Assembly: GCA_015179045.1 (NCBI GenBank)
Contig: WHUZ01000051.1
Span: forward strand, 1 to 64,000
Length of the DNA: 64,000 bases
Origin: Kalaharituber pfeilii
Lineage: Eukaryota; Ascomycota; Pezizomycetes; Pezizales; Pezizaceae
Direction of reading: 5' to 3'
Numbering within the stretch: position 1 is the first letter of the stretch; each line of letters opens with the position of its first letter. The translations under genes and the position numbers were made by a program. The notes under the pieces are model-generated. The model had not been told where the DNA came from. It made no database searches and was given only the letters and a program-made list of their open reading frames with translations. Of this stretch, positions 7,956-50,642 are shown piece by piece.

Positions 7956-8453
7956 CTAAGAGAGCTCCAGTAAACGTCAGTCAATCCCGCCATCTTGACG
8001 TTCTTTAAAGGAAAAATATGTAAACTGGCGTACTATTCCTCGATTGCGACAGAATTTGATTTGGGTAGTGAGCAGCCTAGATAAGCCAACAGAGAATTCG
8101 CTCGACATGAAATTATCGCACTCGATCAGTTATTATCTACAAGTAGATTAGTATGCCTTCTTGACGATGTCCGTAAGACGGTTCGCATTTTTGGCCTACC
8201 TCTAGGAATTGATGAACATTTCTAGGGGCTGAGCTCACCATAGCAGGAGGCAACGGTAGCCCTGAGCTTGGGCGCACCAGCGAAACCTAATAAGCCGCGA
8301 AGACAGATCGGGATTCTGAATCCTGTTGTTTTACTGCTGCCCTCTGTTGTTGTCAATTGCCTCAAATGAAGAACACTTGGAGGATGTAGAGACGCTCCCT
8401 TATGCAACAAGGAAGGAACGTATGGTTTCAATGTCGACGCCGGAATGCTTAGA
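7956..8453. other. no gene recognised
   Basis: Spacer upstream of the small acidic reading frame. No supported coding, RNA or repeat feature. Confidence 0.4.
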
Positions 8454-8523
8454 GTTTTTTTTTTTTTTTTCGGGGGGGTGGGGGGTCACGTTACCCCGCA
8501 TACAGGCTACCGGCCTATGGCAG
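8454..8523 (-). mobile_element. mini-retroelement family B, copy 5 (70 bp, 12-bp TSD)
   Basis: On the minus strand the body reads (CC)CTGCCATAGGCC, GCCTGTATGCGGGG, TAACGTGA, then a C-rich patch and an A tail. It is bounded by perfect 12-bp direct repeats ggaatgcttaga at 8442-8453 and 8524-8535. Same 5' end and hairpin as the other copies. Confidence 0.8.
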
Positions 8524-8845
8524 GGAATGCTTAGAAGGTATTGGGCCTGCGAAACAAGTGACATGCAATTGCTTGCGAACTGCCTTTAAAAGCGAATATT
8601 GAGCTCAGTCTCGAGACTATACGAGCCTGCTCTAGTTGACCATGAGGCTAGTTAGTGGTTACGAGACGAAGGCTAGTTATCAGCGGTATTCAGATTAGCA
8701 TATAAAATGGAATCCGGCGGACAAACCAGTTTATCCGGTCTGTAGTCTGAGTACCCTCTTGTGAAAATCGGATTTTCTGCAAAAAAACGCGAAAATAAAC
8801 CGGTTTAACTGGTTTATTACCAGATAAAATTTTGTATGGAGATGA

Positions 8846-8891
8846 CCGGATTTTCCGGACTTGATAAAATTCTGAAATCCGGAAAATCTGG
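8846..8891. repeat. inverted repeat / hairpin with 14-bp arms
   Basis: Arms CCGGATTTTCCGGA (8846-8859) and TCCGGAAAATCTGG (8878-8891) are reverse complements except for one position, around an 18-nt loop. The left arm itself nearly repeats CCGGA. Role unknown; possible remnant of a small inverted-repeat element. Confidence 0.5.
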
Positions 8892-9222
8892 CCAGATCTA
8901 TCGTATTATCGTGCCTGAGTAACCTTCGTGCCAACCAGACTAGAGTAACCTGCTGCTTCCATGTTCCAGTCACAGTACACACAACGGCGTGCCAAGATCA
9001 TGGTTGCCATTCCAGCCAATAGAATTAAACATTCGTGGAATACTAGTCTTGAATAGTCTCGTAACCAGACTAAGTCTTGAAGCAGAATACTTGGAGTATT
9101 CCTGGTAGTCTCGTAACCAGACGCTGAATAGAGTTTCCGGGACTAATCAAGTGCTTAATTTATTTTATTCCTGCTATAATAGCGATTGCTCTGTGCATCA
9201 GAGCCAGCGTATGTAAAATTGG

Positions 9223-9276
9223 ATTGTAACTCAATTGTTCGAACTCAGCATTGTAACTCAATTGTTTGAACTCAGC
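9223..9276. repeat. 27-bp direct repeat, two copies
   Basis: Two adjacent 27-bp units (9223-9249 and 9250-9276) starting ATTGTAACTCAATTGTT and differing at one base. Confidence 0.6.
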
Positions 9277-11508
9277 TTTGAACATGTTCTTGCTTACGTG
9301 CGTAATTGCGCTGCATTGTATTGCAATTTTCCATTGGATAACCCGTGTCGTTCTGGAAGCAGGAATATTCCAAGGTGAAACTGGAACAATCGCTCATTCG
9401 TACCGCTCTATTCAGCTCATTTCCCACTCAGTTACAGCCGTTAACCACATCAGATCTATTCCCGGCCGCATAGATCGGCAATATTGAAATCGCCTCCGAT
9501 GCAGATCCTAGTTCTTGACATCTCCTTCTTTTCCCCATTCCAGATCTCCATTCGCCAGCACCGCTCATACCCTGGTCACCCGATACATCCGCTAATACCC
9601 CGGTCTTTGGGTTCTCGCAATTGGATTTTACCTAGAGGTACACAGCTCGTCCCTGATTTTAGGATGCGATGTGCTCGATCAGACAAATGGCATGCAACCA
9701 TTTGTTTGGTTACATACAAGTAAATGAACCTGCCAAGATAGTGTGGTTAGCACCTACAAAGGAGCCATTCACGTTGCTAAACCAACATTGCAGAGGTACA
9801 CGACTAGTCCCAATACGGGCAACCGATTGAGTTTGCACCTGGAGGCTAATTTCCTAGCACAGCCCCGCGAACGAGACTACCTAAGCCCTTGTGTATACCG
9901 CTTGCATTGTATGGTTACGGTAGCATTCTTGTCTGGTACTAACCAGACGAAGGCTGATGTCAGAACATGCTATTCTTGCGTACATGCGATTATCAGTCTC
10001 GCATGCGCTGCTTGTTCTCAGCATGCTGTGGACAGTTAATGTCAATCTAAAGTTATAGTCTCATGCCAAAACACTCTGGCTGCTCAAGCTGATCGTGCCA
10101 AAGCATACCTTAGCTGATCCAGAGCACAGAGCTTGCGGCCTTTACGGCTCGCTAGTATCTTGGATAGGTCCCAATACCGTGGGTTGCCAATATTGTCCTA
10201 GTCCAGCTGATACTCTCCGAGAAATAGACTCTGACACAGCTGATCTTCCTGCTAATGAGACTAGAACAGTCAACTAACGTTCAGCCCAAGCAGGGTTGAT
10301 TTTTTTGTTTAAGCAAAACCAATAGTGAGATGAATGGACATAAGTCCAAAAAGAGTAAGTTTATCTTGCCAACATCCGGAAGTTGGCATGGAAGAAAACA
10401 GCGGCGCACGAATCAATACAAGAGTCATTCATACCAGGCTTCGCTGACTGGTAGCCCCAGTTGTATCACCTGAAGTTCTTGCACCCGCCGAGTGGCTAAC
10501 TCAAAAGGCCTGTTGGTGGCTTTTCCCTCGGGGCCATATGTTGCCATGATCAGTATCATAGCTACAAGCAGGGTTCTATAAAAAATCAAAAAAAATCTGG
10601 TGTCTCATGTGCTATGGCCTTGACATTTCGTCTTGTGAAACGTGTCCGTGCCGAATTGTAACCCAGTCGTGATGTCTTGAATTCTGTCTCAATCACTACT
10701 ACTCCGCTGTCACGATAGATCCCTCACTCAGCGTTCTTCGATATCCGAAAAAGCAATATGCGGTCCGAGCGGTTTCTGCGTGAATATCAGTTTCATGATA
10801 ACACCCCGTTAGGATTCAACCGAATAAGACATGAGAATAAACAAGGGAATATGATTAACTCACTTCTTTCGTGCCGATATTCCTCTCCCGGCCCTATCTA
10901 GAACGTCGATTTTCCACCACTTGCTTCTAAATCTCCCTGCTCGCACGCCTCCTGACCAATACTATAGAAAATGAGCACTCTCTGTCTTGGAATCTAGGAA
11001 CCACAGGTTTTCCCAAGCAGACCTTTTGTGGCTCGACAATCAGACATCACTGGATGCGAATATGTACTGTAGTATCACTACGGCCATTGGTCGTCACGAT
11101 CATTGATTCGAGGGTCCAGAACCTCCCTGCCTGACCCTCAAACTCACGAGGTCAAAAACGGTATTCTTAACGCAGTGAGGCTATTTCCAAACAAAAGAGG
11201 TTTATTATCTCTTTTGTCAAACAAATCTAGGGTTATCATGCATCTAGGGTGCCGGAGCAGACACATGTAACACAACTAAAGTGATGAAGCGGACGGAGCC
11301 TGCAGTGACATTCTCATCCCGTGACATCCAGGAATGCATCACAAGTCTCACCTCAGGATGAGACTATCCGAAGCTGGTAACTAAGTATTCCTGATAATTG
11401 GGGATGTGTGGTCTGTCATCTGGAATTTCAACCCAATTGAAACGGCGCCTTTTAGCTAGGTTGCACTAATCTGTTTAGTTTAGCTGTTTCCTTATCTTCC
11501 TTTGTGCG
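9277..11508. other. no gene recognised
   Basis: Only short open frames in all directions, with no domain-like motifs or convincing splice structure. Confidence 0.45.
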
Positions 11509-11600
11509 TGATCTCGCCATCGCCCACGAGGTGGCATGCGAGTAATGATATTTTTTTTTTTAAAACAAAAGAAATAAATAAATAAATAAATAAATATCTT
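11509..11600 (+). mobile_element. diverged LINE 3' tail (family A)
   Basis: ATCTCGCCATCGCCC...GGTGGCATGCGAGTAATGATAT is a diverged copy of the LINE 3' end, followed by a T/A-rich stretch and (AAAT)n. A 6-bp match (tatctt) on both sides is too short to count as a TSD. Confidence 0.5.
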
Positions 11601-16490: not shown

Positions 16491-16499
16491 ATACATAAA

Positions 16500-19080: not shown

Positions 19081-19139
19081 TGTGTTGAATGTGAAAAATG
19101 TGAACAAGTGATTTAGTAGCGACAATTAGGATGAAACTT

Positions 19140-28000: not shown

Positions 28001-30385
28001 CATTTTAGAACTTGCGCTTAGCGACCTCCTGGACTCTACTCTCCTGAATTTATCGTGAATCACTGATATCGTACATTGGAATAGGGGTCAAGCAATGAAC
28101 ATTTTACATAAATCAGATTTTGAGGTGCAATTTCTAAGCGTCATCGTTAGCTCTTCCCCTATATACGATACTTTGTCACGAGTGAAGCATACTTATTATT
28201 GTCATGGACAGAACATTTTTTTGTAAGATAAATATTGTTATGTGGATCTTCGTTATGAAATTAAATCAAGACTAATATCTCTGCATGTGAGAGAAATGCA
28301 TCAGCAATACGAATATCAAGTAAATGTTTGACAGCTTCCCAAAAATACCTCTGTAACCCTTTATATACGCCTTGTTTCATAACCGTCCTGCCTGGTCCCG
28401 GTATACTTGTAAATCATCAGAATGAATTTCGCAAGCTCAAGCCTTGTTCAACCCTTTGGTATTTCAATAGGGCTATTAAATCGAGGACTGCGCTTTGAGG
28501 TCGAGTCCCCGTGCACCTGTGGCGCTAGCCGTGCCCGAAATCCGACGATGCCCATCCTGATTGTCATGGACCTTTAGATCAAGGAGAGGCTCTAGTCTTG
28601 GGGAGTGGCGCACGCGATCGATGCAAAGCATCATCCCGCTATCCGAAAGTTCGCGGTTGAATCGGCGAACTCAGTTAGCGATGAATAGAATCATGGGGAT
28701 CCACTTGCATGCATGGATCCATGCAGGTGCATGCACGCGCCATGTTAGGTGTGCTCAGAATGAGAAGAGCAGTGTGGCTGGGGCTATTATTTCGGTTTCG
28801 AGCTCCGATAGGCTCATAAGCAGAAGGGTGTTTGCGATAGAAGTGAAGTTGTACTGGCCAAATTGACAGCTAAATTAAGGTCTTCGCACTTGTGCCAATA
28901 GATCAGTAATAGAGCTCAGTTTGGCATTAATATGTACGTAACTGATGGAATGAGATGTGTGATTTATACCATGCCACATCATTCACTCTAAATGAAAACT
29001 CTCCGTGGCCAAGTGACAACGCATGCACCACCACAGATTGTGCGTAGTACAATTGCAAAAACGCTCAACACATCCCCGCCTCTATGGTGACAAAGCAGGT
29101 CCCAATGCAGGAAACTGACAGGATATCCTTGTTCATGCCACATTCAGTTCCGGAAGAGACAAGTGTATCCTTCATTAGCATAAACTCTGTTGCAAAAGGA
29201 TAAACATTGCCAATGAATGCACTCTTGATGCTGCTAACATCTACAATTAGTGTTATCATATCCGAAGGTCAGCTCATGTACGAAAATGACTGAAAAGTGC
29301 AATGTCTCAACAGAAACTGGTGTATCGTTTTGAACTAGAGCGATCGTATCCTGTCAGACTCAAAGTAAACGTAGGCCCGAACGCGCACATGCAGGCGTGC
29401 ATGCAGCCTTCTGCATCTCGAAGCTCATATTGTCAAATAACCGGATTCTCCACGCCTGCATATGTTCAAAAAGTCAGTATGATTTCACAGGCAATCCCTG
29501 ATCCAGACTTATCATGCTTAAAGCTTTTTCCCAATTGGCCTAGTAGGGATAGATTGTGCTTCTGTGCACAGGACATAGAGTGCCAAATACCCTTTCCAGT
29601 GCCGAAGCTACGAGAAACCTTTTGCTAAAGGGGATGGTCTTACTATACGCACACAAACTGAACACGAGGGACTCCGTGCTATTGAACAAAATGCTCCAAC
29701 TGCCATAACTCTGGGCCATCCCTATGCTAAGTGTCGGTGTTTCAGCCCTGTTGATGTGCGGTGTACTCTTACATACTAGGAGCGCAGGTTAACACCAATA
29801 TCGTGATGGACGAGGATGATCCCAGCGCACAGATTTGTGCGAACACCTCAACGGCATTCTTCGCTGTGTCTGGAAATTTTCAACATGATGCGTTTGGGCC
29901 CTGGGGTCATCAACATTGACACGTTCTCATTTGTAGCATTAGTACTGTATGCCGAATCTGAGAAGGCATTGCCAAAGTCGACCTAGTGCCTAACTGTAGT
30001 GTCATGGGTAAATGTGGTCGTATACAAGAATTGTTGCTTTATTTCATTGGTTAACTGGTGCATCCGTTCATGATCATATGGCACAGGCTGAGACACCTAC
30101 GTCGTTCACATCCCTGCATCATATAAGGAGCGTGTCTGTAAAGCATCAGCTGTACGCAACGATGAGGGAAAGGCTGCAAGTGAGGGAAGTCTTGGTGGTG
30201 GATGCGAGGGGTTGCGGAAGGAGGATGAAGGATAGAGGAGCTGAAGTGGACAGTAATTTCGAGGCACGGACTTCAGAAATACGGGGGCGTGTCTAGCGGC
30301 TACCGATTGGCGGAACAATCTTGAAGCGGCATTCCCTTGGCATTGAGCGTGCACGTGCCTAAGAGGAATGCCCGCACATCTTATG
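22061..30385. other. long stretch without a recognisable gene
   Basis: Over 8 kb with no domain-bearing frame and no LINE tail. Some minus-strand frames (27124-27399, 29065-29259) have protein-like composition but no motif or consistent splicing. GCATGC-containing palindromes recur, e.g. near 22513, 22998-23024, 23717-23743 and 28710-28725. Confidence 0.45.
28710..28725. repeat. 16-bp perfect palindrome
   Basis: TGCATGGATCCATGCA is its own reverse complement, inside a longer TGCATG-rich stretch (28705-28735). Confidence 0.7.
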
Positions 30386-30453
30386 TTTTTTTTTTTTTTT
30401 TTTTTTTTTTTTATATCACATGACCCCGCTTGTAGCTGTTCGCCATGGCAGGG
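30386..30453 (-). mobile_element. mini-retroelement family B, copy 1 (68 bp, 9-bp TSD)
   Basis: On the minus strand: CCCTGCCATGGCGAACAGC, then ACAAGCGGGG, TCATGTGATAT and ~26 A. Flanked by perfect 9-bp direct repeats catcttatg (30377-30385 and 30454-30462). The 5' end is identical to copies 2 and 3. Confidence 0.85.
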
Positions 30454-30489
30454 CATCTTATGTTGTGAAGTACAATGTACCTGATATAA

Positions 30490-31822: not shown

Positions 31823-33449
31823 ATCCTATACTAGCGGCTTTGCCCAAGGTAAAATAGACTGTGGCCCAGCATCAGAGGAGAGGAGTCAGATTGTGTACGT
31901 GAGGAGTGAAAACATCTTTTGAGGCGCATAAATACATCTGCATCAATGCTACCTTTTTATATGCTTCTAAGTTCTCCTAGTTACATGTATGTAAATATCG
32001 ATGAAAAAGGTTCGGGGCATCCCCTTCTGTCTCACTTAGAGTGTTTTCGACGCTGAACAACCCAGCTTACCAGAAGTGAGCCATCGCAAACCAGACATAA
32101 CCATCGCATTGGTTAAGTCCGGCTCTCCGTAGCGGGCTGCGCTCTCACGGAGATGGTCGTTTGAGCATTGACTACCAGCTTCAGCACAGTAATTCCCCGT
32201 GGAGCATCAAGATCTATGCCCTTTTTCCTCCACAGTAGGAACCATGCTTGGGTATGAAGCAACGTCAGCTCGACCTTGGCCCCACACAAACCGAAATACC
32301 CAGTTCTCTTTAAAGATTGAAGTCATCTAACCCTGCACCAGTGTTTCTGGAAACTCATTTAGATGTCCCAGCGATAGTTTACCTGAGGAAGTGGTGACCG
32401 GAACCAAAGGAGGGGGAGACGGATGGAATCAATGGGTGCGTGAAGGTGGTGACACCGAACCTGCGGTGAAAGCGGGGGCCGAAAGTGTGCATACGTAATG
32501 TTTCTTTCCCCGCGCCTCGTCATTGGCATGAGGCTAATATACCTCGTCATAGCCCAGCAGGACTGCATATGAGCTAGGAAACAAAAGGATAAAATAAAAA
32601 AAGGGTTATTTGAAGAGCTTATAATCAACATTATTGGTATACGTAGCTCTATCCACTCAATGAGTTCTCAAATATTTACGTAAAGGCGGTATAAGATAGT
32701 TAGGGGTTCACTTGCTCCTGTACCGAGACTAAACTCTTGTTCCACATATTGACACGAATGAGTTATTAATGGCACACACGGCTTTTCAGCTCGCACAAAT
32801 TTGATATGCCTTATATAGTATCTTGCTGGTATCGAGAAAAGGAGTCGCGGAACGTTAGTGTGGTTGCAAGTTGATGGGATGTGCTCTTGTACCCAAGTAA
32901 TGAAGCCGTGTCGTCAGCTGATTGATTGTGTCGTCTAGTGTACGTAAGGGTAACAAATCCAACTTTTCACTTCGTCAACTGGTGCTTGAGTCCAAGATTT
33001 TGAACTTCGGTGACATCGCAACTGATCCCTCCTCACAGGGCACATCGAATTTAGCAGAGTGTCGAAGACACGCTTCATGGAGCGGAGTAGCATCGGAATT
33101 AATAGTCTGGTAAAGGAATTAATTAGGGACAATGACCGTACTAGGTTGGGTAGCCAAGTCGGCGACGGCTTCCCAAGTGGTAGAAAAGTCACCCGCAAAC
33201 TCGAATATGGTATTTGGCCACAGGAGGGAGGGAAGGATAATCGTAGCAGAGCGGTGTCGCGCTGGGAGCTTGGTGTTGGAAATAGTTCTCCCTTCAACGT
33301 AGCAACTGCAATGGCCGTGCATTGGTAATTCTCTACAGCTCACGTAGCCCTGAGGGTCGCAGTTATTGGTATGCTTGGCAGTTGTTCTCTTGGCATGAGT
33401 TCATTCTGTGGGCAGAAGCAATATTGTAAGCTGCTAGTATATTAAAGCT
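31823..33449. other. no gene recognised
   Basis: Short frames on both strands only. 32935-33343 has overlapping frames with no motif. Confidence 0.4.
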
Positions 33450-33516
33450 TTTTTTTTTTTTTTTCTCTTTCAAATCACGTAACCCCGCTTGCAGATGTTC
33501 GCCATGGCAGGGCTGG
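33450..33516 (-). mobile_element. mini-retroelement family B, copy 2 (67 bp, 10-bp TSD)
   Basis: Minus strand: CCAG then CCCTGCCATGGCGAACATC, TGCAAGCGGGG, TTACGTGATTTG and an A-rich tail. Flanked by perfect 10-bp direct repeats tattaaagct (33440-33449 and 33517-33526). Confidence 0.85.
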
Positions 33517-35727
33517 TATTAAAGCTACAACCTCTCATATCAACAAGTCTCTTGAACTTAGTCCGGTCGGCCAACCAGACTACCTTGAACTATCTGTTAA
33601 TGCCTGAATCCTTAGCGCAGCCCAATTCACCGCACCAAGCTACGTTGGAAGGGACCAGTGCTGTTTCCTGGACTTCTGCTTGAGAACTCCACTTTTTATC
33701 CTCCGTCTCCTACGCAATTGGAAAACATTTCGGTGTCCAGGCTTTACAGCAATATTGAAACCAACCGGATGACGTGGAAAGGGTTGAGATTCCAGAACTC
33801 CGCATCGAGGAATTAATCAGGCTCGGTGTCCATGAGCCGCCTGGCTGTGCTATCTTTTTCTTGTGACCGCCGTTTCCGCAATTTCCACAACAGCGAGCGC
33901 GCCCAGGCGACCTTCAAATATACAAATTGGAAGTTCTCCAATGCTTTCTTGACATGGCAGAGAAGGATACGTCTGAAGCTGAAGCATTGCCTCCTCTCCC
34001 TTATGGAACCGGAGCCTGTGCGCCCTGCCGACGCCAAGACAATCCCAACGGTTGTAATAGAGTTATTGTGAATTTTGTTTGGCGAATACTGCAGCAAGCT
34101 TATCACCGCTGAAATGAAAGAACCGCTGCATCTGAGTGCATTATGGAACGAGTTGAAGGATCTTGCTTCGACCGCTGAGCCGTTCTTCTCAATTCTTCAC
34201 CGACTAGAGTGTCTTGAAATGGAACGCGAGCAAATACTGATGGAGCCATTATACTCAGAATGGTGGGAAAAGTGCAAGGAACTCCGCATTGATTGGGAGG
34301 ACATTCTGAACCCCATCAACCAATGGAGTTTGACAGAGGCTTGTGGCAAAACATTGACATTCACTTCATCGTTGAACAGAAGCTACGCCTGAATCACGTA
34401 CCTGAGCCTTGTGAGAAGAAGTTAACGAAAGAGCAACTGGAAGCTAAACGGAAGAGGGACGATGGCAAAAGGATTAATTAGCAGGTTACTGACACCACAA
34501 CCGAACTTTGGGTACTGGGCGTCGCGGTCATTGAGGCAGAACCTCCACTCCTAGATCGAGGACTTGATAACCCCGATGCCGATCGTACAAGGGCTATGGA
34601 CGAGAAGGACTGGGGTGTTCCCGTGAATTGCAGAGCTCTGGGGGAGATATATAGAGAAACCCGAGAGGAAGAAAGTGGAATGAAGTGCGGCAAATCTGCT
34701 TTTTGACAATTGGTTCTAATCTTGCAAGTGTCCGTATAAAGATTCAAGAAATGATGTAAGTGAGATTTCAGCCCTTTTTCCTCAGGTGTCAGAACAGCTC
34801 TAGAGTTACATACATACTGACAGTGTGCAACCTTCCTCGTTTGGAGGTTTGCTTAGCCGCAACTTCACTTACATGGCCTCTCGTGTCGTTCGTTCGTACA
34901 AAGCATTTCACCTCATTGCCCCTCTTGCGGTAAAATTCTTTTTTTTTAGCAAGAGAGTAAGTTGGATGGAAACTATTATTTTACAGTCCGGCGCTCCAGT
35001 ACAATAGTCATCATACAACAGGATTTGAAGTAGAAGCTGACAAGAAGGTGCCTCAGAACTGATTCATCTGCAGTAACAAAGCAGAGTTCACTCATCTGGA
35101 GGAGCGGCCAAATTCACAACCCGGGCTACAGCAAATTCCAGCTACTCCACCGAGTAGCAGCTTCAAATCAATGTGGTCAGAAACTAGTGCAGGAATTTGG
35201 AAAAAAAGGCTTCAAACGTTAGTCATCTTAAACCATGATGGCCTTGACATCTCACAATGGTTGAAGGAGGAATGAAGTATCAAGAGCTTCCGGAAGACAT
35301 GGCAGCAGTTGCCACATAGCTTCATGTTAGGACGGGAATAACAGACCTCATGTAGCTCATGAAGATGCTTGCTGGCGATGCAACCAAGCTTCGTCTGGAA
35401 TACTATGAACGGATGTTTAATGCATTAAAGGGGAAATCCTCTGCAAAAGTGGAAAAGGCCACCCCCAAGACCCCAATGTTGTCACGATTCGGAGTTACAC
35501 GAGATGAAGTAGACTCTGATGATGTCTTGTTTGAGGGAAGAGCTATTATATACATCCTATACGGCAATTTGTTAGAACGTCTCAAGACTTTGACACTCCT
35601 GGCACATCACCTCGAAATGGTGAAGAGATCTGCAATATTACCTCGTATCTACTGGTCTTTCTGAAATTTGAACTCGAAGTTACGGTATTTAATGCAAAGG
35701 GCGCGGTGAAGCACTATAACATTACAG

Positions 35728-39579: not shown

Positions 39580-39710
39580 TTTTTTTTTTTTTTTTTTTTT
39601 TTATATCATTACTCGCGTGCCGCCCTGGGGGCTATGGCGAGATTAGTTACATGAGATTAGATACATATGAAGGTAGAAGAAAAGGAATAAGAAAAGATCC
39701 TGTGTGTCTC

Positions 39711-40154
39711 CTATGCCCCTGCCCACTCCAAGATGTCTCTAAGTGGGTCTGTGTCCTTGCTCTTCGGAGGAGTGACCAAGTCTTGCATGCCTCCTGGCCA
39801 CTTTCGTTTCCATGTCCTGCACCTAGTGAGCACATGTTCAGTAGTCTCCTCCTCCTCCCCACACCATCGACATTCTGGGCTGTCTGCTTTCCCGATTTCG
39901 TACTGCCATTTCCGTAGTAACTTGCCGCCCAGTATTCCTGCTAGTGTGGCTATGTGTCGACTTCCAAGTCTTGTCAAGGGACGGTAGCTGAGCCCTAGCC
40001 GGTTTCTCTCTGTGGCGCGCTGATGTCTCGAGGTTTGTCGTATCCCATCTTCTGTTATGGTTTCATCTTGGTAGGGGAGGCATGTGCCTATTTTCGCAGC
40101 TGTGTCTGCTTCGGTGTTCCCTTTGACTCCTATATGGGACTTGACCCACATCAC
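39711..40154 (-). pseudogene. LINE ORF2 part 3: RNase H end and CCHC finger
   Basis: 147 codons: WVKSHIGVKGNTEADTAAK (last RNase H motif with conserved Asp), the RNRLGLSYRPLTRLG linker, and the finger CRWCGEEEETTEHVLTRC (C-x2-C-x8-H-x4-C), ending ILEWAGA. This finger recurs in four 5'-truncated copies in the window and helps identify them. Confidence 0.8.
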
Positions 40155-40200
40155 TGCAACGTCCCAGTCACCTCGGTCTGTTCTCGCTTTCCAGGCGTCT

Positions 40201-41706
40201 CTAACCAGTTTTTGCCGGTCCTTTGTGGGTGGGCTCTCCCTGGGCGATCTTTAGGAGCTTGGATATCGATACCTTAGAGTCGGTTATGATCAGGAGTTCC
40301 CCAGCTTGATTGCGTAATGCTTCGCTCATGGCAATGAGTTCTGCATCATTGACAGTAGTCTGTTCCCCTAGGTATGTGGAAGTAGAGGTGTCTTTTGCGT
40401 AGGTGCCTAGGCCTGTCTTGTAATCTATCCTGCTCCCGTCAGTGTAGACGGAGTTCCACCCCTCGTCCTCGGCATTGGCTATGGCATTCTCGAACTCGAG
40501 CTTGTCTGCGTCCGCAGGTAGTGCTGCTAGGATGGCTAGTGGTAGGGGGTTGTTGTGTGAGAGAGACCCCCGTAGGTACCTGCACTCATTATCCCTGTTT
40601 TGAATTATCTCATCGTGGAACCGTAGGGCCCTGGCTTCTACCCTCTGGCGTTCTCCTTCTAGGAATGTTTGGGCTGATTCTAGGTTGGCTATTCCTTCGA
40701 CTACGTCTCGCCTGGTACCCCACGGGGCTGCAGTAATCTTCTGTGCTACTGTGTATTGCCATTTTTCTATGTCTTTGATCTTGGTTGCTGGTGGAGACTG
40801 TCTTGAGTAGTCCTGCCATGCCCAGCATCCCCATGTGGCGATTGTGCGTGCGATGCTTGTATATATCTGTCGTTTCTTGCCTGGTGTGAGGCGAGTGAGT
40901 CTCGATGCCACTCCCCATGCTGCCTTCCCGAGAAGTAGTCTCTTCTTATGATGTCGAGTAAATTTTAGCTCCCAATCTACCGTCAATCCGGTTAGCCTAT
41001 AGTCAGGGCCTTTTACCCCAATTATTAGTGTCTCGGACTTGTTTGGGTCAATTTCGAATCCATGCTCTGCTGCTGTTTCGGTGATTTTTGCCCTGTGTAT
41101 CTTTATGGCTTGTCGGAGTTTTAGGAGTGACGGATGTGAGATTACACTGTGGAAATCATCGACATATGACCTGGTGAAGTTGTGTTGGTCTACCTTCTCT
41201 GCCACAGGTGCTACACCTATCAGGAATAGTACCAGGGATAGTGGAGATCCTTGCGGTGTACCATCTGTCATCCTCCCTGTAGCTCTCCTTTTGCCATCCC
41301 ATGTCATGTTGTAGTTGGTCGGCATCATAAAAGCTTCTACAAAGCTCGCTAGGTTATGGTCTGTTTGTCTTATTCGAGCAACCACCTTGTCCCTTCGAAG
41401 AAAGTTAAAAGCTGACTTGATATCGTCTCCTACTAGGGCTACCCATTCTTTCTTCTGTAACCTCTTCTCTGTCTCCTTCAGCACTTGTCGCTGTAGATCC
41501 TCTGCACCTCGATGGCGTCTTCCTCCAAGCTGAGTGTCTCTGAAAAGGTCGTCTTTTCTTTGTAGCAGGTCTGCGATGACTTTTTGACCTAGCTTCGCTA
41601 CTGTGTTCAGAAGCGTTATGGGTCTCCAACTCCCTACCTGATCTCTGGGTTTCCCTTTCTTGAGTATCATAACCACCTCAAAGCCTCTGGCAAAAGTCGT
41701 AGTCAC
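40201..41706 (-). pseudogene. LINE ORF2 part 2: reverse transcriptase and RNase H
   Basis: About 500 codons. RT motifs in order: SWRPITLLNTVAKLGQKVIA, DIKSAFNFLRRD, GTPQGSPLSLVLF, the catalytic SYVDD and LIIGVKG. RNase H follows with SVYTDGSRI, ELIAMSEAL and LIITDSKVSISKLL. The frame ends at 40201, a few residues after QGEPTHKGPA; the rest of RNase H is in a third frame. The first in-frame ATG is only a reading start; the real start is 42982. Confidence 0.8.
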
Positions 41707-42982
41707 CGTTTATATACTCTACAATTCTCTCTCTTACAGCAGTCCATAGAGTCGTACCCTTCAGAAGCTTCAGTAAGCCATATTGTATGCCATCGGGTCC
41801 CGGTGCTGATCTTGGTTTAGCTTTTGTTAGTGCCTTTTCTATCATCATCCTGGCTTGATCTTTTTCGACGGTGAGTCCTGTTGGTCTGATAGTAGTGGTC
41901 GTAGTTTCTTGTCCTTGTGATATGAAGTTGCGCTCAATCAATACCTTAGCTATCTCCTCGTCTGAGCCTGGTATCCCCATGAGGTCTCTTTGGCGGAAAG
42001 GGTCTCTTGCTAGCCTGAAAATATCCCATGGTGAGGTGATTCTGTCCTCTTCTAAGAAGCCTTCCCAGTATTCCTTCTTCTTATCTCTTATTATCTCCCT
42101 AAGTAGTCTTCTCGCTCTTGTTTTCTCTGTGTGGCTAGCCCCGCTCTTTAGAATGGTTCTGGTCATTTGTCGTGCCTCTTTTACCTCCTTGTCGAACCAT
42201 CGTTTCGTGCGTCTGGTGATGTATGCATCTTTTGTAAACTTTTGGCTTAATTCACATAGTAGTTCATACCCATCAATACCTTCGGCTAGTTTTCTGTTGC
42301 CATATTTATCAACAAATTCTTCCCATTTGTCCCAGTCTGTTACTTTAATGGTTTTGGCCTCTGTCTTCTTTCTGGTATCCAATGTTCCGATAATCATCAC
42401 ATGGTCTGTACCAGAAATCCATGTTGTCTTTGTTGTTTTCCATTCCCTGGGTCTTGCGAATACCAGGTCCAAGAGTGCCGTTCTTATCTGTCCATTGATT
42501 GTCCGTGTCCATGTGATAGTATTTCTATCTATCTGTTGGAGTAGTCCTCGTGCTTGGAGGGTGTCTTTTAATAGTATGCCTCTAGTATCTTGTTTCGGAG
42601 ACCAGTCATAGTGATGGCTGTTGCAGTCCCCTATTATCATATCCGTTACTCCTATCTCTTCCAATTCCTTCTCAATATCGGTGTCTCTGTTCCAGTACAC
42701 TCCAGTAATCATTCGGTCGTCTAATTGTACTGTGATGTGGTTGGCTTTGCCGTCTATTTTCATGCTCATTATTCTGTCCTTCCTTACGTAGGCTGTTATT
42801 GCTCCGCTTTTTATAGGAGAATGTACGTTCGTATAGCTTGGATGAAATGTAGTTCCTCCCCTTGGTGCTCTCCAGCATTCCCCTATAAAAAGTATATCTA
42901 TTTTCTTGTCTGCTGCTTCCTGTAGGGCTAGGTCCGTCCCCAGTATTGACCTGCCAACGTTCTGGTATGCGACCTTAATCAT
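41678..42982 (-). pseudogene. LINE ORF2 part 1: endonuclease and start of RT
   Basis: 434 codons from ATG 42982. APE-type endonuclease motifs in order: YQNVGRS (N), LFIGECW (E), IIGDCNSHHYDW (D/N), LDLVFARP, and SGTDHVMI near residue 200. Then a linker with many basic residues and the first RT block PRSAPGPDGIQYGLLKLL near the C-terminus. The frame stops at 41678, where RT homology continues in another frame from about 41706. Confidence 0.8.
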
Positions 42983-45900
42983 AGTCTTATTTGTCGATAC
43001 CCTGGTGCCCTATATGGGGTCGCTTTCTCCTGTGCTGCTCTCGCTCGTTCACACCCTTCCTCGTGTCCGCCTTTCTTTCGACAAGCCTGGCATGACTTTG
43101 CAAATGGAGTTTCATTGAGGTCGACTGGGTCTTCGTAGTCTCGCCTTGCTGGTGGCTCTTCAGATGTTCTGGAAGGTTGCGTTGTCTGGGGAGCCACTCG
43201 ATTACCTGTCCCACTACGAAATGTCGGCAGTATCCATCTGGAGCAGTGTACCTATATCTTCTGGCTTTATTCGAGGTCTCCTTTCCTAGATCCTGTCTTA
43301 GGTATAGCTTTATTCTATCACCTCTGAAGAGTAAGCCTGATTTTAGGGTCTCGACTACTCCATCAGTCACAAAAATGGATAGTGCCTTGTTTCCTTGTGT
43401 TGGGACCTGTTTGTTAGTTAATCTGCGTACTGATCTATTGGCCAATACTCCTGGATTGTCAGCTCTCAATTCTCTCTCCACCCTGCTCGGAGCCTCATTG
43501 GTTCCTATGTTAAAAGTTACTAGCTCAACCATTCTGTGATCCCAGTCGACCTTTAGATGTTGGTGTCCATTGCATGTTGCTTTCTCTAGGGGGCCTAGAG
43601 ACCTAAGTCCTTTCTTATACTGAGTATCTGCCATGATTAAGATTCTTTCGTGGGGGTATTCTGGGTCCAGGGCAACGAATCTCACTTGGTACTCTGCTTC
43701 CGTTCCTAGGTTTCGATTGATCCTGTCTCTCATGGCCTTTTTGTGCTCGAACACTGAGTGTGATCTTGGATCCTCACTAATACTCTGCCAGTTTTGCGCC
43801 CCAAAGACTCTCGCCTGCCACAGTTTCTCCTTGGGTATTACTTCTTCCTCACCCTTCTGTGCTGGCCCCTTGAGTAGTGTCCGCTTTTCCTCTTGTCTCT
43901 GAGTTGGGGTTCCTGCTTGGGGTTTGTCTTCTCTTGTGAGTTTGGCTTCTTTTACTGCCGTAGCATATGATTTCCTTTTCTCAGTGGATTGGGAGGGTTT
44001 TGTCTCATTCTCTGGTGTCCTCTCCTTGCTTTTCTCTCCTTTATGTGTCGGTATGTTGGGAGTACTACTTGTGCCTCTCGTCTCGGCCCCTTCTTATTGT
44101 CCAGTTTCTCAGTGGTAGGAGCACCCTCACTGGTGGCTGTTTTGTTAGTATTATTTCTAGCTGTTCTATTGGTAGCTGCTCCCTTTCGTCCATCTCCTTG
44201 GGGCTTGGATCCACCTCGTGATGTCTTAGGAAGCTGTACTGTAGTTGTAGACTTTATCACAGGTTCTTGCGCCGGGCTTGAGTTTGTTGGTATGCTGTTG
44301 GACATGTGTATGGTACTCGACATGTCTGTGTTGTCTCGCATGGCTATGTCTCTGTCAATTTCGATTGCGTGCTTGCTGTCTTTGAGGTTCGTATTGGTGA
44401 GGTCATAATCCATACTATCTCCTCCTTCTTCTGTAGTCTTCTGGGCAGGTACCGAGGAGCTTCTCTTTCCTACCGGCCTTCGTATCATTCCTGTGAGGGG
44501 CGATGGTATTGTCTTGAGCCTGACCGCGTGCCTGCTATCCTCAAGTTTCACGTTTGTATAAGTTCTGTCCATTTGGTCCCCTCCTTCTTCAGTAGTTAGT
44601 TTGTTATTTGGCATGGGTGATGCGCTAGGCGTGCTGAGGTCAATTAATGTAGGCGTCTTTGTCTCCAAGGGTGTGGCCGTTGCTGTCAATTCGGGCGTGT
44701 TTGCTCCTGAGGTAAGGTCATTCCAGTTTGTTGTATGTGTCAGTGTGAGTTCTGGTTCCATTTCGATTCTGCCTGGCGTGACTACCCCGAGTCTTCTTCT
44801 TAGGTCATCCAAGATATTGCTGTGGTATTGTAAGGCGTCTAGGATAATCCTCACCCAACTGTCGTCCCGCTCTCTGAGGGTGTCTCGGTTGAATATCTCG
44901 TATAGTATTTCGTCCTTGATTTTCTTTCTTTCGACTGCCATCTGGTTGAGCATGAAGTGGCGAATGCCCTCGTGGTGTGTTTCTAAGCACACTCTCGTGT
45001 GCTGTTTTAGGTCTTGTTGTGCCTCTTCTAGTTCCCGGCTTATGTCAGTATGGATGCTATCCGTTCCTGCTGCTTGCTCGCTCCTCCAGGCCCAGTATTT
45101 ATCAGCCATATCCCTCGTCCATCTTTTAAGGTCATTATCCACTTCTCTTTCCCACCTGCCCAGTCCGAATCGTTTCTCTAGTCCCCGTAGGGCTTCTGCT
45201 GCTGAAGCTCCCATATATCTGGCAGTCTCTTGTTTCATACGGCCCTGAGTCATCTTGGTTTCCCAGGATCGTGCCTGCCTCGCTGCGGCTATTGCTGTAT
45301 CCAGCATGAATTGCTCCTCATAGGCACTCTCATCCATGTCCGGGGTTCGGGGTCTGTCCGGAGTTGGTGGCCGAGTGCTGGGAGTTGCCGGTATATATAT
45401 TACTGTGTCGTCTGATGACTCGCTTTGTGTGTCATCATCTTTAATGAGCATGTGTGCTCCGGCGTGAGGCACCGGGGTGTACCCTTCATTGTCACTAAAG
45501 TCTGGGTCCTTGTATAGGGGGAGGGACGTGGTCTTGCTTGTGGATGCAGGTTCCTCTTGTGAATCCAGGACCTCTGACTCATTGTCATATGTCGCCGGAA
45601 TCGTAGTTCTTAATTCTGGTGGTCTCACCATGATCATTTCTTCCATCTTGTCGTAGGTATTAGGGGCGGGTGGCTTTACTACAATTGTCTCCTCCATCTG
45701 GTCTTCGGGTGGGCGGGAGTCCATGGCCTTGCTTCTTTCGATGAACTCAATTATTTGCTGGGTCAGAACCCTGCCTGCCTGTATGTCGTCGATAGTTATT
45801 GTCCTAACAGGGACCTCAATGTCCTCCTCGTCTGCGAATACGCCTCGCCCCACCGCTAGGGTGGTTGCATTTTCCATTCTTTCTGCCTTTTCCGGTTCTC

Positions 45901-46126
45901 CCTTTCTGGTGTGTTGGATAATGTCAGCAAACTTATGAAGGGTCCATTGCTGGTCTTCGGCGATAAATGTCATGTCTTCATGCGCCTTCCAGTCCTTCAC
46001 CATATAAAACTCTATGTTATTTACCCTTGGGCGGCGCTTTGCCGTCCGTGTGGCGCTTTTTGCTTGCCGAAGAGGGTCGGCCCGGCTGTTGGTTCGGCCT
46101 CTTGTGGCTTTCGTGGTTGGAGCCAT
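42979..46126 (-). pseudogene. LINE ORF1 (RNA-binding protein), frameshifted
   Basis: ATG at 46126 opens 724 codons to 43952: a basic N-terminus, a DWKAHEDMTFIAEDQQWTLH segment, then long acidic and Ser/Thr/Pro-rich regions with two related internal blocks (TTEEGGDQMDRTYTNVKLED and TTEEGGDSMDYDLTNTNLKD). Homology continues in another frame at 42987-43754 (SIFVTDGVVETLKSGLLFRG, RRYRYTAPDGYCRHFVVGQV), then shifts again into 42979-43197, which holds a zinc-knuckle-like motif CQACRKKGGHEEGC. At least two frameshifts. The end overlaps the ORF2 start by 4 nt. Confidence 0.7.
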
Positions 46127-46432
46127 CGGTGGCTGGTGGGTTGTACGCTATTGGTCTTAGTATGTTGGGTGGCGTTTGGGTGGCAAGGGGTGTGTGTAGC
46201 TAGTGGATGTGAGTGGCGAATAGTGGGTGGCAAATACTGTCCTTATCTGGGTTGCGTATTTTCGTAGTGGTGGGGAGGCCGCTGATGGGGTCTCAGGGTG
46301 CCCCCGCCGTCGAGGCGACTGTACGAGCTGAAGGTGGGTTGGGGGGTTGGTGGAGGTTCTGGGGGGCGTTCCCAGAGCGTTGATGGCTGTTTCTTTGGGG
46401 AAGGTGTCTAAATGTTCGTTTTTGGTAGATAT

Positions 46433-48070
46433 TTAGAGGTCCCCGCGACCTTCGGGCCGAGGGGCGTCGTCTGTCGTTGTCCGCTTGTCGCTAGCTGTCC
46501 TGTGGGTCGAGATACGGGCTCGGTCACGTGATCTTGGACGTGGCCCGAGGAGGTTGTAGAGGTGTGTGAAGAGGCACCCGTCGCGGTCCGCGCCTAACGC
46601 GCCATCCCCCGCGTCGCACGCCGTTGCCGCGTTCCAGCCCGCGTTCCGCACGGTCTGGGTGTGCGGCGAAAGATCCCGGGGGGTCATCACTCCCGCGCCG
46701 CAGAGCCGAACCACGACGATGCTACAGTTGGGGCGTCCGCCTTCTGCCGCGTCCAGAAGCGCATAGGTGCCCCACCGACGTCCTTGCGCGGACCCGCCGA
46801 CCTTGTATACCGCGTAATGCTGGTTGACCGCAGCAGGGGAGGCGGCCTGGCGCGGGAACAGAGCTCGGTTGCAGCTCACCGGCCAGGTCTGGAGCACGGC
46901 CAAGCGCGCACCAGCGCGGGAATTCGGTGAGGCGTGGCCACGCCAAAGGTCGGCATCGACGCTGGTGTCGATTACCGCAAGCATGGTGGGCATCGAACTG
47001 TTCACGCGGAGGGCGTTGTCGTACCAGTAAGCGCCGAGGCCGGAAATGCTGCAGTCCAGTGGACTGTGTCCTCGCGCGCTACACATGTCGCGCGATCCAG
47101 ATTCACGCGCGGGGATTAGCGACTGTTTTCCCGGGGCCGCTCATCTCAGACACTGAGGAGGAGAATTATGCAAGGACTTACCCGTCGTTCAGCCGACGGT
47201 CCCAGTGCGATTCGCACGGGTCCGATGACACCAGCAGGCGCCCGGATTGGGCCGCCAACAGAGTCCCTACCTCGCACGCAGCGGCAGCCAGTCGCCCGCG
47301 GAGGATGCGCCATCTGACGTACTCCCCCGCGCGGGGCTTCAGCGCCCAGAGCCATGAGCCGAGCTGGCGCTCCGGCGGGAGCATGTAAGACAGGCCGGCC
47401 CACGAGTCGGCAAACTCGGGCGCGCGGCACGCGAGCTCCGCCAGCGCGAGGGCCATCTCCGCGCGGAAGTCGATCGTGCGGGCGGCTGCCGCGCGGGGCT
47501 TGGACATCGACCTCATATGATCACGGGCCAGCGGGCGGATCTCGATCTTGGTGTGCGTGGCGGTTATCAGAAGCGCGGGGTCGGTGGCGATAGTGGAGGC
47601 CTTGACGTCGTGCGCGAGCACGGTGGCGCTCGTTGCGCGGCGCTGGCATATCCTGTTGCCCGGGGAAGAGCACCCGCGTTATAATTATCAAGACAAAGCC
47701 TCCACGAGGTGCCGTCTCTGTGAACTTGGCCATGAGGAATTTTGGGCGACCGCTGCACCGGCTGGCTATCCCAAGCTTTATTCTACTGTACGTACCTGTC
47801 GAACAGCTCCCTTGCACTGACTCCCACACCTGCGCTATACAGAAACCCGCTTCCGAAAAACACGCAGACAGCTTCAGCGCACACCGCTTCTCTCGTAAAC
47901 ACCTCGTGCTGCGCTCTGTTGACCTGGCGCAGGCTGCCCACGTCCCGCGGCTCGAGGTAGCCGAGGATCTGGATCAACAGTTCCATGGGGAGGCATTCGA
48001 GGAACGGCGGCGGCGACTGGTGCGTGCCTGGCCTGGCATAGCTGTTTGGGAGTGGGATATGATCGACCAT
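46433..48070 (-). CDS. F-box protein, three exons, 458 aa
   Basis: Exons 48070-47796, 47652-47182 and 47063-46433 (stop TAA at 46433-46435). Introns 47653-47795 (GTACGT...CAACAG) and 47064-47181 (GTAAGT...CACAG) have matching phases; the spliced CDS is 1377 nt. An F-box lies at residues ~24-65 (FLECLPMELLIQILGYLEPR), so it is probably an SCF ubiquitin-ligase substrate receptor. The remaining ~390 residues are Ala/Arg-rich and contain an Asp/Cys-containing region (LDCSISGLGAYWYDNALRV) with no family I recognise. The gene is much more GC-rich than its neighbours. It lies between the 5' end of the large LINE and the Tc1 relic. Start chosen at the ATG before the F-box. Confidence 0.65.
47064..47181 (-). 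other. intron 2 of the F-box gene
   Basis: Donor GTAAGT, acceptor GACACAG, 118 nt, phase 2. A GCTAAT branch-like site lies inside. A nearby alternative acceptor (CTGCAG) keeps the frame and would shorten the protein by five residues. Confidence 0.5.
47653..47795 (-). other. intron 1 of the F-box gene
   Basis: AG|GTACGT donor and CAACAG|G acceptor, phase 2 on both sides, 143 nt. Skipping it would end the protein at 47783. Confidence 0.6.
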
Positions 48071-48623
48071 TGTTTTTGCTGGATTGATGGGTACTGTGTA
48101 CAGGTGGGGCGAGACAAGGGTACATCTCAGCCTCACGGATGTTGAGTATTTTCTTCCTGTGCATATGCAGTATGTTACTAGGGTGATTGAGTTGCATGAG
48201 GGAGCATAAATGTTAGTGCCAAGATGATCTGCCTTAATCTTATCTGCTCATTGGCAGGTAGAGACAAGAGCTAGAGGCAACATCACGTGCTTTGGATATG
48301 CAGGGTACCCTTTGAATCAGTTAAACTCCGTAGTGGCAATGTGCAAGTGATTTATTAGACATGGCTGTTTTTTGTGCCACAGCGAGAGGGTTCAAAGAAC
48401 TGAAAAAAAAAAAAAAAAAAAGAGACTCGAGGAAGGCGAGTAAATTTCCGACTTTTTTTTTTATATCATTGTTCACATGCTGTCCTATGGGCTAAGGTGA
48501 ATTTAGGTGAAAATGAAATTAGGAGAGTAAAATATGAGGTAATAAAGTAGAAAGGTCCTCCTGTTCAGTAAGATATAAGATAGCAAATTGCCGATGCAAG
48601 CTTGCATCATGCAAAAACGGTTG
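48071..48623. other. intergenic region upstream of the F-box gene
   Basis: Putative promoter region. Includes an A run at 48402-48421 and the diverged LINE tail at 48450-48510. No coding frame supported. Confidence 0.4.
48450..48510 (-). mobile_element. diverged LINE 3' tail
   Basis: T run, then ATATCATTGTTCACATGCTGTCCTATGGGCTAAGGTGAA: a diverged copy of the family A 3' end on the minus strand. No clear TSD. Confidence 0.6.
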
Positions 48624-48919
48624 AAAAGAAAACGCCCACCTTTGCATAATCTTTGGGCCTGCGTGCATAAACTTTAGGCCTGTACTTAATTAAGACATAC
48701 ACGCGCCTAGGTCTTACAACGTTGCGCTAAGTTGGGAATTCTGAGCTGGAGATGATTCCTAACATTAGGGGAAAGAAAATATAAGGTTGACTCCTAAAGG
48801 GTCAAGAAAAAAATCTACAGCACCCTACAGGTAACTGACAGCCGAATTTACAAAATCCTGCCTAATAATGTCAACTCAAACTGCTGCCTCCTCAGTGCCT
48901 CCGTGCCGCTCTCAAGAAG

Positions 48920-48981
48920 CGAATGACCGACCTTGAAAAAGGTCAAACTGTCCTTCTGGACCAACGGGGTTGTCATTGCAA

Positions 48982-49017
<36 letters not shown>

Positions 49018-50060
49018 CAGTACTCGCTTGCTGCCCTATAGGCTATGGCGAGGGTTTATTTGGAATCAAAGTAAGAAAAAACAGTAACAACTACATCACT
49101 TAAGTACATGTTGTACCATTCATGGTGCGGGTGGCAGGCCCAGTATGTCTTACTTCCGTCCCCTGTCCGATTCATACCCTTCTGATCTTAACCATCGTCC
49201 TCCGAGCCTCACCCTCCCTACCTCGGTGGCCTTCTCCGAGTAGACTACCACTGAGCTGGTTTTCTTCCCATTGTCAACCAGCGTGGTCTTCTTCCTCAGC
49301 CAACGAATTCCGGAGATTTTCCCAAGTCCTTTGTTCGCTGCCTCTAACCATTGTCTGACCTTCCCTAAGTCTTTTCGTAGGGCGATCCCGTGTACCACGA
49401 TGCCGGCTCTTGGTTTCGTGGTGGCGTCGGGAGTGGTTGGTGGGGAGGCGGGGGTGCTCCTGGGGCGGGGAGGGGAGTTTTTTGGTGGGGTGGCTTCCGC
49501 TCGGTGGTGCCTGAAGGCTGCTTCTTGGCTAGGCAGCTTTCCTCTGCGCTTCTTGACGGAAGGCTCCTCTGCGTAGGGTGGTTCTCCCAAGGGTGTGGTG
49601 TCGACCAGAGGTGACGATTGCAACAGATTGCGAATCAAAAGTACTATTCGAGATTTCCTTAAGCATTATAAGGAGTGAGGCACTGCTGAAAATTTGCCTA
49701 AGAGTGGAAGACGAAAAAGCTAAATAAGAATGTTATGGACTCTATTACTGCTTTACTTGATAGTGACCTATCTGTATCAAAGCTCTCTCTATAGAAACAT
49801 TTAAAGGAAAATCTAGACATCAAAGTTGAGTCGTGAACCCTCGATTGGAACCTCGGCCTTGACGGCTGTCGGAAGTGGAGAGCTGGAAAGAGACCTAAAT
49901 TAACTCCTATCCATGCTGCAGCGAGGTTAGCTTGGGCCCTGGAGAGGAAGGATTGGACAGAGGAAACCTGGGCAAAGTATGTTTGGTCTGATGAATGCCA
50001 TGTTGAGAGAAGTAATGGTTGTGGTGCGAAGTGGATATGGAGGAAGAATAGAGAGGAGTG
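48920..50060 (+). pseudogene. Tc1/mariner transposase remnant, interrupted
   Basis: Before the insert: MTDLEKGQTVLLDQRGCHCN (N-terminal HTH). After it: IRDFLKHYKE, an in-frame TGA, GTAENLPKSGRRKS (typical second HTH and GRPKK-like box), and after further stops RPKLTPIHAAARLAWALERK, DWTEETWAKYVWSDECHVE (first catalytic Asp region, WSDE) and WIWRKNREE. The downstream DDE residues are missing. In-frame stops and frameshifts show long decay. Confidence 0.7.
48988..49616 (-). mobile_element. internally deleted LINE (ORF1 segment fused to 3' tail), 13-bp TSD
   Basis: 629-bp minus-strand insertion between perfect 13-bp repeats attgcaacagatt (48975-48987 and 49617-49629). It carries part of ORF1 (49616-49150: IVVHGIALRKDLGKVRQWLE, GIRWLRKKTTLVDNGKKTSS, YESDRGRK) joined directly to the 3' UTR, hairpin and A tail (48988-49040). 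All of ORF2 is missing. Removing the insert and one TSD makes the transposase HTH frame continuous. Confidence 0.85.
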
Positions 50061-50179
50061 ATATGCTGTAGAAGCAGTGGACCCTAGCAGCTAATTTCTT
50101 ATTGGCATTAGTGGCGGTAATAGCGCGTATGTAGGTCTAAGACATCAAATTATGCAAATTTAGGTGGGCGTTTTCTTTT

Positions 50180-50642
50180 GCCATGTGACTGTATGTACTA
50201 TATCATCACACGAAGTCACTCTATCATGCATCTGTTGCCGCGGCCCACTGAGCCTCAGCAGGCAGCTGAAGTCCGCCTATTGCTATCGTGGGGTACAACG
50301 GTTTTACGTCGTCCAACCGATGGCATAGCCCTGCCATGGCGAATAGCTGCAAGCGGGGTTACGTGATATTAAAAAAAAAAACGGATGGCATAGAGCTGGA
50401 GTAAGAAATAAAAGTGAATGACATGCTTGATTACGTTACAGAAAGAGGGCTAACACGCCACAAGAGAAGGCGTGACCGCAGGTTTGCGTTAATATATACC
50501 TTATTTTTTTCTCCTTCCTTTTTTCTCCTTTTTTTTTTTGATTTGGTCTGAGATGTCACAGTGCTCGCACACTGTCCTAAAGGGTGTAGCTACGGCCAAA
50601 AGTTGCTGAAATCGGGAATAAAGAAATTTAAGAAATGCGGTA
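50180..50642. other. spacer with a mini-element and a possible old LINE tail
   Basis: Contains family B copy 3. Around 50530-50610 a T run followed by GTGCTCGCACACTGTCCTAAAGGGTGTAGCTA vaguely resembles the LINE 3' end; too diverged to be sure. Confidence 0.4.
50329..50383 (+). mobile_element. mini-retroelement family B, copy 3 (55 bp, 10-bp TSD)
   Basis: CCCTGCCATGGCGAATAGC, TGCAAGCGGGG, TTACGTGATATT then A11. Flanked by perfect 10-bp direct repeats gatggcatag (50319-50328 and 50384-50393). Plus orientation; the shortest clear copy, with the same 5' end as the others. Confidence 0.85.

What the first reader, a model, noticed from the sequence alone, without database searches (positions are those of the whole stretch)
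8442..50393. A family of ~55-70-bp poly(A)-tailed mini-retroelements with a fixed 5' end (family B)
Five copies (7320-7392, 8454-8523, 30386-30453, 33450-33516, 50329-50383) share a 40-45-nt body beginning CCCTGCC and ending in (A/C)GTGAT plus an A tail. Four have perfect 9-12-bp TSDs. LINE-derived copies normally have random 5' truncation points; here the 5' boundary is constant, so these look like discrete elements rather than LINE tails. That would be far shorter than any usual SINE. No internal Pol III boxes are evident, so the source RNA is unexplained.
Basis: partly seen in the sequence, partly recalled or inferred. Interest (0 to 1): 0.88.

Follow-up and report, generated by a model that had tools for sequence, protein, structure and literature searches.

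The report
Stem-loop stubs of a fungal LINE
A truffle genome holds about a thousand jumping-gene copies only some 40 letters long, each being just the last RNA hairpin of a full-size jumping gene cut at the hairpin's base, which suggests how little RNA the copying enzyme needs.

Summary
All five window copies are real, four have target-site duplications, and the type is abundant: 1,625 exact hairpin copies genome-wide, 0 in the reversed-pattern control. They do not need a separate source gene: the body is the 3'-terminal stem-loop (SL3) plus poly(A) of a LINE (L109: endonuclease, RT, RNase H). But 5' ends are not spread. In a sample of one subfamily picked blind to the 5' end (first 48 of 413 listed), 41 start at or within a few bases of the first base of SL3, 3 at the next stem-loop (SL1), 4 run further. 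The base before CCCTGCC is templated (G, A or T by subfamily) and, if G or A, is the predicted first paired base of SL3. A second LINE family in the same genome (family A) has mostly spread ends (1 of 20 flush). So these are LINE 3'-tail stubs with structure-set, quantized 5' ends. I favour reverse transcription of 3' RNA fragments that begin at a stem base; RT stopping there is the main rival, not excluded. Host is most likely Kalaharituber pfeilii.

The parts
7320..7392 (+). Family B stub, ATAGGC subtype: 40-nt stem-loop body and an (AAAAT)n tail; no TSD found
8455..8526 (-). Family B stub, ATAGGC subtype, C-rich stretch then A tail; base 8526 (T on -) is shared with the TSD
   Evidence: 38 of the 40 scored genome matches (of 580 candidates) end at query 85-89, this 5' boundary
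8442..8453 (.). TSD GGAATGCTTAGA, left copy of the 8455 stub
   Evidence: by eye
8524..8535 (.). TSD GGAATGCTTAGA, right copy (its first bases overlap the stub's end)
   Evidence: by eye
30386..30454 (-). Family B stub, GGCGAA subtype; base 30454 is the templated G and also part of the TSD
30377..30387 (.). TSD CATCTTATGTT (AACATAAGATG on -), left copy
30454..30464 (.). TSD, right copy of the 30386 stub
33450..33513 (-). Family B stub, GGCGAA subtype; 3-nt filler between TSD and templated G
33440..33449 (.). TSD TATTAAAGCT, left copy
33517..33526 (.). TSD TATTAAAGCT, right copy
50328..50381 (+). Family B stub, GGCGAA subtype: templated G (shared with TSD), SL3, GTTACGTGATATT, A tail
50319..50328 (.). 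TSD GATGGCATAG, left copy
50384..50393 (.). TSD GATGGCATAG, right copy
39580..46126 (-). Comparison element: LINE of family A (endonuclease, RT, RNase H), 3' end CTCGCC..GCGAGTAATGATAT and A tail
   Evidence: that the tail at 39580 belongs to the ORFs upstream is inferred from position and strand
4627..4683 (-). Family A stub whose 5' end is flush with its stem (rare case); TSD ACAAAGGAGAGA at 4615-4626 and 4684-4695
   Evidence: by eye

Best explanation
Each family B element is the 3'-terminal stem-loop (SL3, about 32 nt, plus the end of GTNACGTGA(T) and poly(A)) of LINE RNA, inserted by a LINE's endonuclease and RT through target-primed reverse transcription. Shown: sequence identity to the LINE end, poly(A), TSDs, and 5' ends that sit on the first base of SL3 or, less often, of the next stem-loop SL1. 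Inferred: SL3 is the RT's recognition element, as in stringent-type LINEs, so SL3 plus an A tail is enough template. Inferred and least certain: the 5' ends are fixed because the template is a 3' fragment of LINE RNA trimmed or protected up to a stem base (for instance by RT bound to SL3), and the RT runs off its end.
For: L109 has endonuclease (Pfam E 2.3e-12), RT (7.7e-13) and RNase H (6e-13) and ends in the tail. Sample picked by the 3' half only: 41 of 48 (of 413) start at SL3, 3 at SL1, 4 further on. Among the first 30 of 158 AGGGG-preceded copies, 13 start at or within a few bases of AAGCCTG, the predicted base of SL1; six of these 30 places, three of the SL1 starts among them, are also in the 48. 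The first base follows the parent subfamily: mostly G; A in A-preceded stubs (15 of 20 read have a TSD ending within 3 bases, 11 exactly); T in ATAGGC-type stubs (L003, L004, L031, by eye). 89 of 114 non-long copies have an exact TSD of at least 9 nt; 61 of 89 join exactly or share the templated base with the TSD, 15 carry one extra base (T 7, C 6, G 2, A 0). TSD overlap with the element's start is 16 of 89, not above the 25% expected by chance (p 0.14), so no sign of microhomology joining. A-type has the most stable hairpin just upstream (GGACUUCGGUCC, -4.2 against -3.4 kcal/mol in G-type) yet a lower stub share, against simple RT blockage.
Against: No RNA data: no fragment has been seen. The stub share differs among subfamilies with near-identical SL3 (G-type about 88%, 1,134 of 1,292, A-type at most 24%, 71 of 302), which the fragment model does not explain by itself. 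Family A, another LINE in the same genome with a hairpin of not much lower predicted energy (-12.9 against -15.3), gave 1 flush end of 20, so general RNA decay alone cannot be the cause. No SL3 pair changed on both sides, so the structure rests on folding energy and near-invariance; SL1 is lost from the best fold when 28 more upstream bases are added.
Confidence: 0.55

Rival explanations
1. RT termination: the RT starts on full-length LINE RNA, copies SL3 and falls off on meeting or finishing a structured domain, giving quantized truncation.
For: 5' truncation of LINE copies is usual (recalled); two pile-ups lie at domain borders; truncations inside SL3 followed by apparent template jumps also occur (L017; L046, L050).
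Against: Stops would be expected at the 3' side of the upstream hairpin (AGGG would be included), but ends lie 4 nt nearer the tail (inference); A-type with the stablest adjacent hairpin and S-type with a strong SL1 (-8.1) have low stub shares; no microhomology excess at junctions. A different RT for those subfamilies could rescue this view.
Confidence: 0.27
2. cDNA trimming: a longer unfinished first strand is chewed back by a 3' exonuclease to the hairpin that the cDNA itself forms, then joined.
For: Would also give flush ends at stem bases (inference).
Against: Should act on family A too, where 1 of 20 ends was flush.
Confidence: 0.08
3. An independent short retroposon with its own source gene and promoter, unrelated to LINE transcription.
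For: Fixed 5' end, TSDs, about a thousand copies.
Against: Several SL3 types (CTACAAGC, CTGCANGC, GGCCAAGTGC, ATAGGC) make stubs; longer copies with the same or nearly the same SL3 were seen for all but GGCCAAGTGC; stubs nearly always begin with the base found upstream in the long copies (one C-start, L088, among 39 exactly joined stubs outside the A-picked set); long A tails suggest a polyadenylated RNA (inference); ARAGORN found no tRNA in the window and 38 loci, Rfam only a 5S gene elsewhere in the window.
Confidence: 0.07
4. Ordinary random 5' truncation seen through a biased sample.
For: Some copies end at scattered places.
Against: 41 of 48 at one place in a sample blind to the 5' end; family A, sampled the same way, is spread.
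Confidence: 0.03

Closest known systems
Stringent-type LINEs and partner SINEs sharing a 3' stem-loop (UnaL2, ZfL2-1/ZfL2-2; Tad1-clade pairs are also named)
   Same: A 3' stem-loop shared by several elements and likely read by the LINE protein (PMC4176376, passages seen).
   Different: There the partner is a SINE with its own body (recalled); here the stem-loop plus poly(A) is the whole insertion, in about a thousand copies with ends on a stem base.
MGL LINE and Mg-SINE of Magnaporthe
   Same: Fungal LINE whose 3' end is mimicked by another element; template jumps at specific sites (PMC2104539, passages seen).
   Different: The passages seen report long chimeras; they mention no hairpin-only stubs.
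5'-truncated LINE copies (for example avian CR1 with a 3' hairpin; PMC8665684, passages seen)
   Same: Same kind of insertion: 3' end kept, 5' end lost.
   Different: Truncation points are normally variable (recalled); here they are quantized.

Membership tests
Non-LTR LINE, 5'-truncated copy | Sequence continues into a LINE with RT | tested here: met
   L109
Non-LTR LINE, 5'-truncated copy | TSD and A tail | tested here: met
   89 of 114 non-long copies with an exact TSD of 9 nt or more after an A-rich tail
Non-LTR LINE, 5'-truncated copy | 5' ends spread over the element | tested here: not met
   41 of 48 at SL3, 3 at SL1, 4 further
SINE | Pol III-derived body (tRNA, 7SL, 5S) with internal promoter | tested here: not met
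   no tRNA by ARAGORN in the window and 38 loci; Rfam at gathering score finds only a 5S gene away from the copies; promoter boxes were not scanned
SINE | Fixed 5' end, short, trans-mobilised | tested here: inconclusive
   fixed end and shortness met; trans-mobilisation not testable here
Stringent-type LINE 3' tail | Stem-loop at the 3' end shared between elements | tested here: met
   folds and shared SL3 across subfamilies
Stringent-type LINE 3' tail | RT binds this stem-loop and needs it | not testable with these tools
   needs binding and retrotransposition assays

The most novel reading that the evidence does not exclude
A class of retroposon whose ends are set by RNA processing rather than by a promoter: LINE RNA is cut or trimmed back to RT-protected stem-loops, and these roughly 40-nt and 80-nt polyadenylated stubs are the preferred insertion template, outnumbering longer copies of their subfamily about ten to one (44 to 4 in the sample of 48).
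Probability: 0.4. Interest if true: 0.75.

Novelty: new variant of a known kind. Interest (0 to 1): 0.6.

Why it matters
It gives a natural hint of the least RNA that a LINE RT accepts (one stem-loop and an A tail), shows truncation quantized by RNA structure, and offers two LINE families in one genome (B quantized, A spread) as a ready comparison for testing what sets the 5' end of LINE insertions. Repeat annotation with usual length cut-offs may overlook such insertions.

Tried and rejected
Tried without use: tRNA and Rfam scans for a small-RNA source. I first guessed a Mortierella-like host (wrong); one search found three homologues of the upstream ORF of the window's family A LINE on Kalaharituber pfeilii contigs of 921,809, 1,541,133 and 191,087 bases, the lengths of C68, C2 and C8 here. 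I rejected upstream hairpin strength as sole cause, because A-type has the stablest adjacent hairpin and a low stub share. I considered Pol II mRNA decay against Pol III transcripts as the difference between subfamilies and dropped it, since A-type copies contain a reading frame that looks by eye like a LINE ORF1. TSD hits of the script with one mismatch or 8 nt at far places (L116, L126, L134, L140) were not used. Literature searches listed nothing that I recognised as hairpin-only LINE insertions; only titles and abstract starts were seen, apart from passages of three papers; open-licence PMC papers only, so this is weak. PMC7550596 (Kalaharituber named once) was seen as a listing only.

Full report
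Observation. The five copies are present. Four have TSDs (10-12 bp); the copy at 7320 has none. Three are GGCGAA-type and two ATAGGC-type. The whole genome (78.0 Mb, 360 contigs) holds 800 exact GGGGTNACGTGAT (control 12) and 1,625 exact GGCGAA-type hairpins (control 0).

What the element is. Folding puts the body in one stem-loop, SL3: GCCCUGC paired with GCGGGGU, 7 pairs plus an inner stem, -15.4 kcal/mol with flanks, z -2.4. Copies that run further 5' exist. L109 (C7:137100-142900) holds a LINE with endonuclease, RT and RNase H domains in pieces of three frames and a CCHC motif in the upstream frame (by eye), ending in ..GGGTTTAGACCCAGGGGCCCTGCCATGGCGAACAGCTACAAGCGGGGTCACGTGATATTAAAA. Its RT is 30% identical over 295 positions to that of the window's family A LINE. 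That it is I- or Tad1-like is a guess from domain order, not tested by a tree.

5' ends. All subfamilies together: of the first 100 of 800 GGGGTNACGTGAT places (L009-L108, contigs C1-C26), the script found a TSD in 61: 44 put the 5' end 22-30 nt before GGGG, that is at the start of SL3, 17 elsewhere (6 to 514 nt), 39 had none (loci). One subfamily, blind to the 5' end (GAACAGCTACAAGCGGGGTCACGTGA, 413 places): of the first 48 listed (contigs C1-C19), 39 by script and two more by eye (L152 with a TSD of only about 6 nt, L171 in repetitive flank) begin at SL3; of the 39, 21 are exact, 16 are one or two bases off and in 2 the TSD word overlaps the first bases. Three begin at SL1 (L144, L156, L161) and 4 run further (L125, L164, L166, L174). 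From 158 AGGGG-preceded copies I read the first 30: 13 begin at or near the SL1 base AAGCCTG (11 with a script TSD, L134 and L136 by eye), one (L112) is an SL3 stub whose TSD happens to end in AGGG, and 16 are longer or different: TSD-defined ends at 119, 149, 404, 512 and 934 nt, others without a usable TSD, several with homology to L109 over 1.5 kb. Six places are in both samples (L115/L144, L118/L156, L124/L161, L125, L126/L166, L130/L174). SL1 is predicted as AAGCCUG-CCUC-CGGGCUU, but with 28 more upstream bases the best fold lacks it, so SL1 is less sure than SL3.

First base. Of 1,625, 1,292 are preceded by G, 302 by A, 31 by C or T. 158 and 231 of these have AGGG further upstream, leaving 1,134 G-preceded and 71 A-preceded others, which include some long copies with a changed AGGG. 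Of 20 of those 71 (from the part of the list shown), 15 are stubs with a TSD ending within 3 bases of the A (11 exactly), one has an 11-nt filler, one follows a poly(A), 3 are long copies. ATAGGC-type stubs begin with T (L003) or TT (L004, L031); their long relatives have ..ATGGGTCCCTGCC, and that type also has two-hairpin forms starting near TTAACCTGACCCGGG (L004, L006, L007) (by eye). The GGCCAAGTGC subtype gave 5 of 5 stubs starting with A (L033, L054, L123, L127, L205; in L127 the A is shared with the TSD, by eye). So the 5' base is copied from the parent, and the same end arises in several subfamilies.

Junctions. Over all fetched loci and the window, 167 distinct SL3 copies matched a relaxed pattern: 53 long-like, 25 without an exact TSD of 9 nt, 89 with one; TSD lengths 9-17, mode 13. 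The sets were picked in different ways (of the 89: 37 from the GTGAT sample, 32 CTACAAGC, 14 A-preceded, 3 from the long set, 3 window), so this is no random sample, and the pattern leaves out ATAGGC-type copies. 47 of 89 join exactly at the templated base, 14 share that base with the TSD, 15 have one extra base, 82 lie within 2 bases of exact. TSD overlap with the element's start is no more than chance (16 of 89, p 0.14).

Controls. S-type tails (CATGGCTTNGCGCT): 141 in all, 110 with GGGA upstream, so at most 31 stubs. None of 20 (of 231) A-type long copies starts at the SL1 position. Family A (2,036 exact copies): of the first 20 listed, 8 have script TSDs with ends at 10, 24, 25, 52, 74, 104, 125 and 216 nt; only L231 (24) is flush with an intact stem (L229, at 25, has lost the stem's 5' half and its TSD has one mismatch); 12 have none in the roughly 260 nt fetched. 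The window has one more flush family A copy (4627-4683) and one cut inside the hairpin (3987). The pile-up is thus a property of family B, strong in G-type, weaker in A-type and S-type.

Mechanism. Identity with the LINE end, poly(A) and TSDs support target-primed reverse transcription by a LINE. PMC4176376 (passages) reports that a LINE protein binds its 3' stem-loop and that LINE/SINE pairs of this type occur in the Tad1 clade; this makes SL3 the likely recognition element, not tested here. Why the end is flush is open. RNA fragments starting at stem bases would explain exact ends, two sizes, one-base additions and lack of microhomology. RT stop would explain two sizes but not easily the 4-nt distance from the upstream hairpin or the A-type read-through. 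Why stub shares differ among subfamilies I could not find.

Limits.

Noticed in passing
window 6269-6388 (-): 5S rRNA gene (Rfam RF00001, 89.9 bits).
   Followed up: no
L050, L046, L017/L116, L240: Head-to-tail chimeras: a truncated stem-loop tail preceded by the poly(A) of another family B or A tail, as if the RT jumped from a partly copied stem-loop to another RNA's poly(A).
   Followed up: partly
L136: A two-hairpin copy with about 15 T between TSD and element start, as if A residues were added to the cDNA end.
   Followed up: no
L002, L003, L004 (second copy), L005-L008 and window 8455-8526: ATAGGC-type tails often carry a run of C between GTGA and the A tail.
   Followed up: no
89 stubs: In the exactly joined class the last TSD base is T or C in 35 of 47 (p 0.0006 against base composition; one of several things looked at, not corrected).
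   Followed up: no
L111, L185 and other A-type loci (L182-L201): A-type copies share up to about 500 bp with a reading frame resembling a LINE ORF1 (..WMEKANPWMGRIVAARWLVNKERREGKKTSS..), possibly an ORF1-only non-autonomous LINE (by eye).
   Followed up: partly
window 52982-58289: Copia-like element (ORFs 53860-57784, named from recall of such ORFs) between two 500-bp repeats, each about 94% identical to the same stretch of L018, likely LTRs.
   Followed up: no
L012, L024, L036, L038 and others: S-type elements of roughly 200-340 bp with purine-rich repeats, scattered 5' ends and the same SL3 stem.
   Followed up: partly
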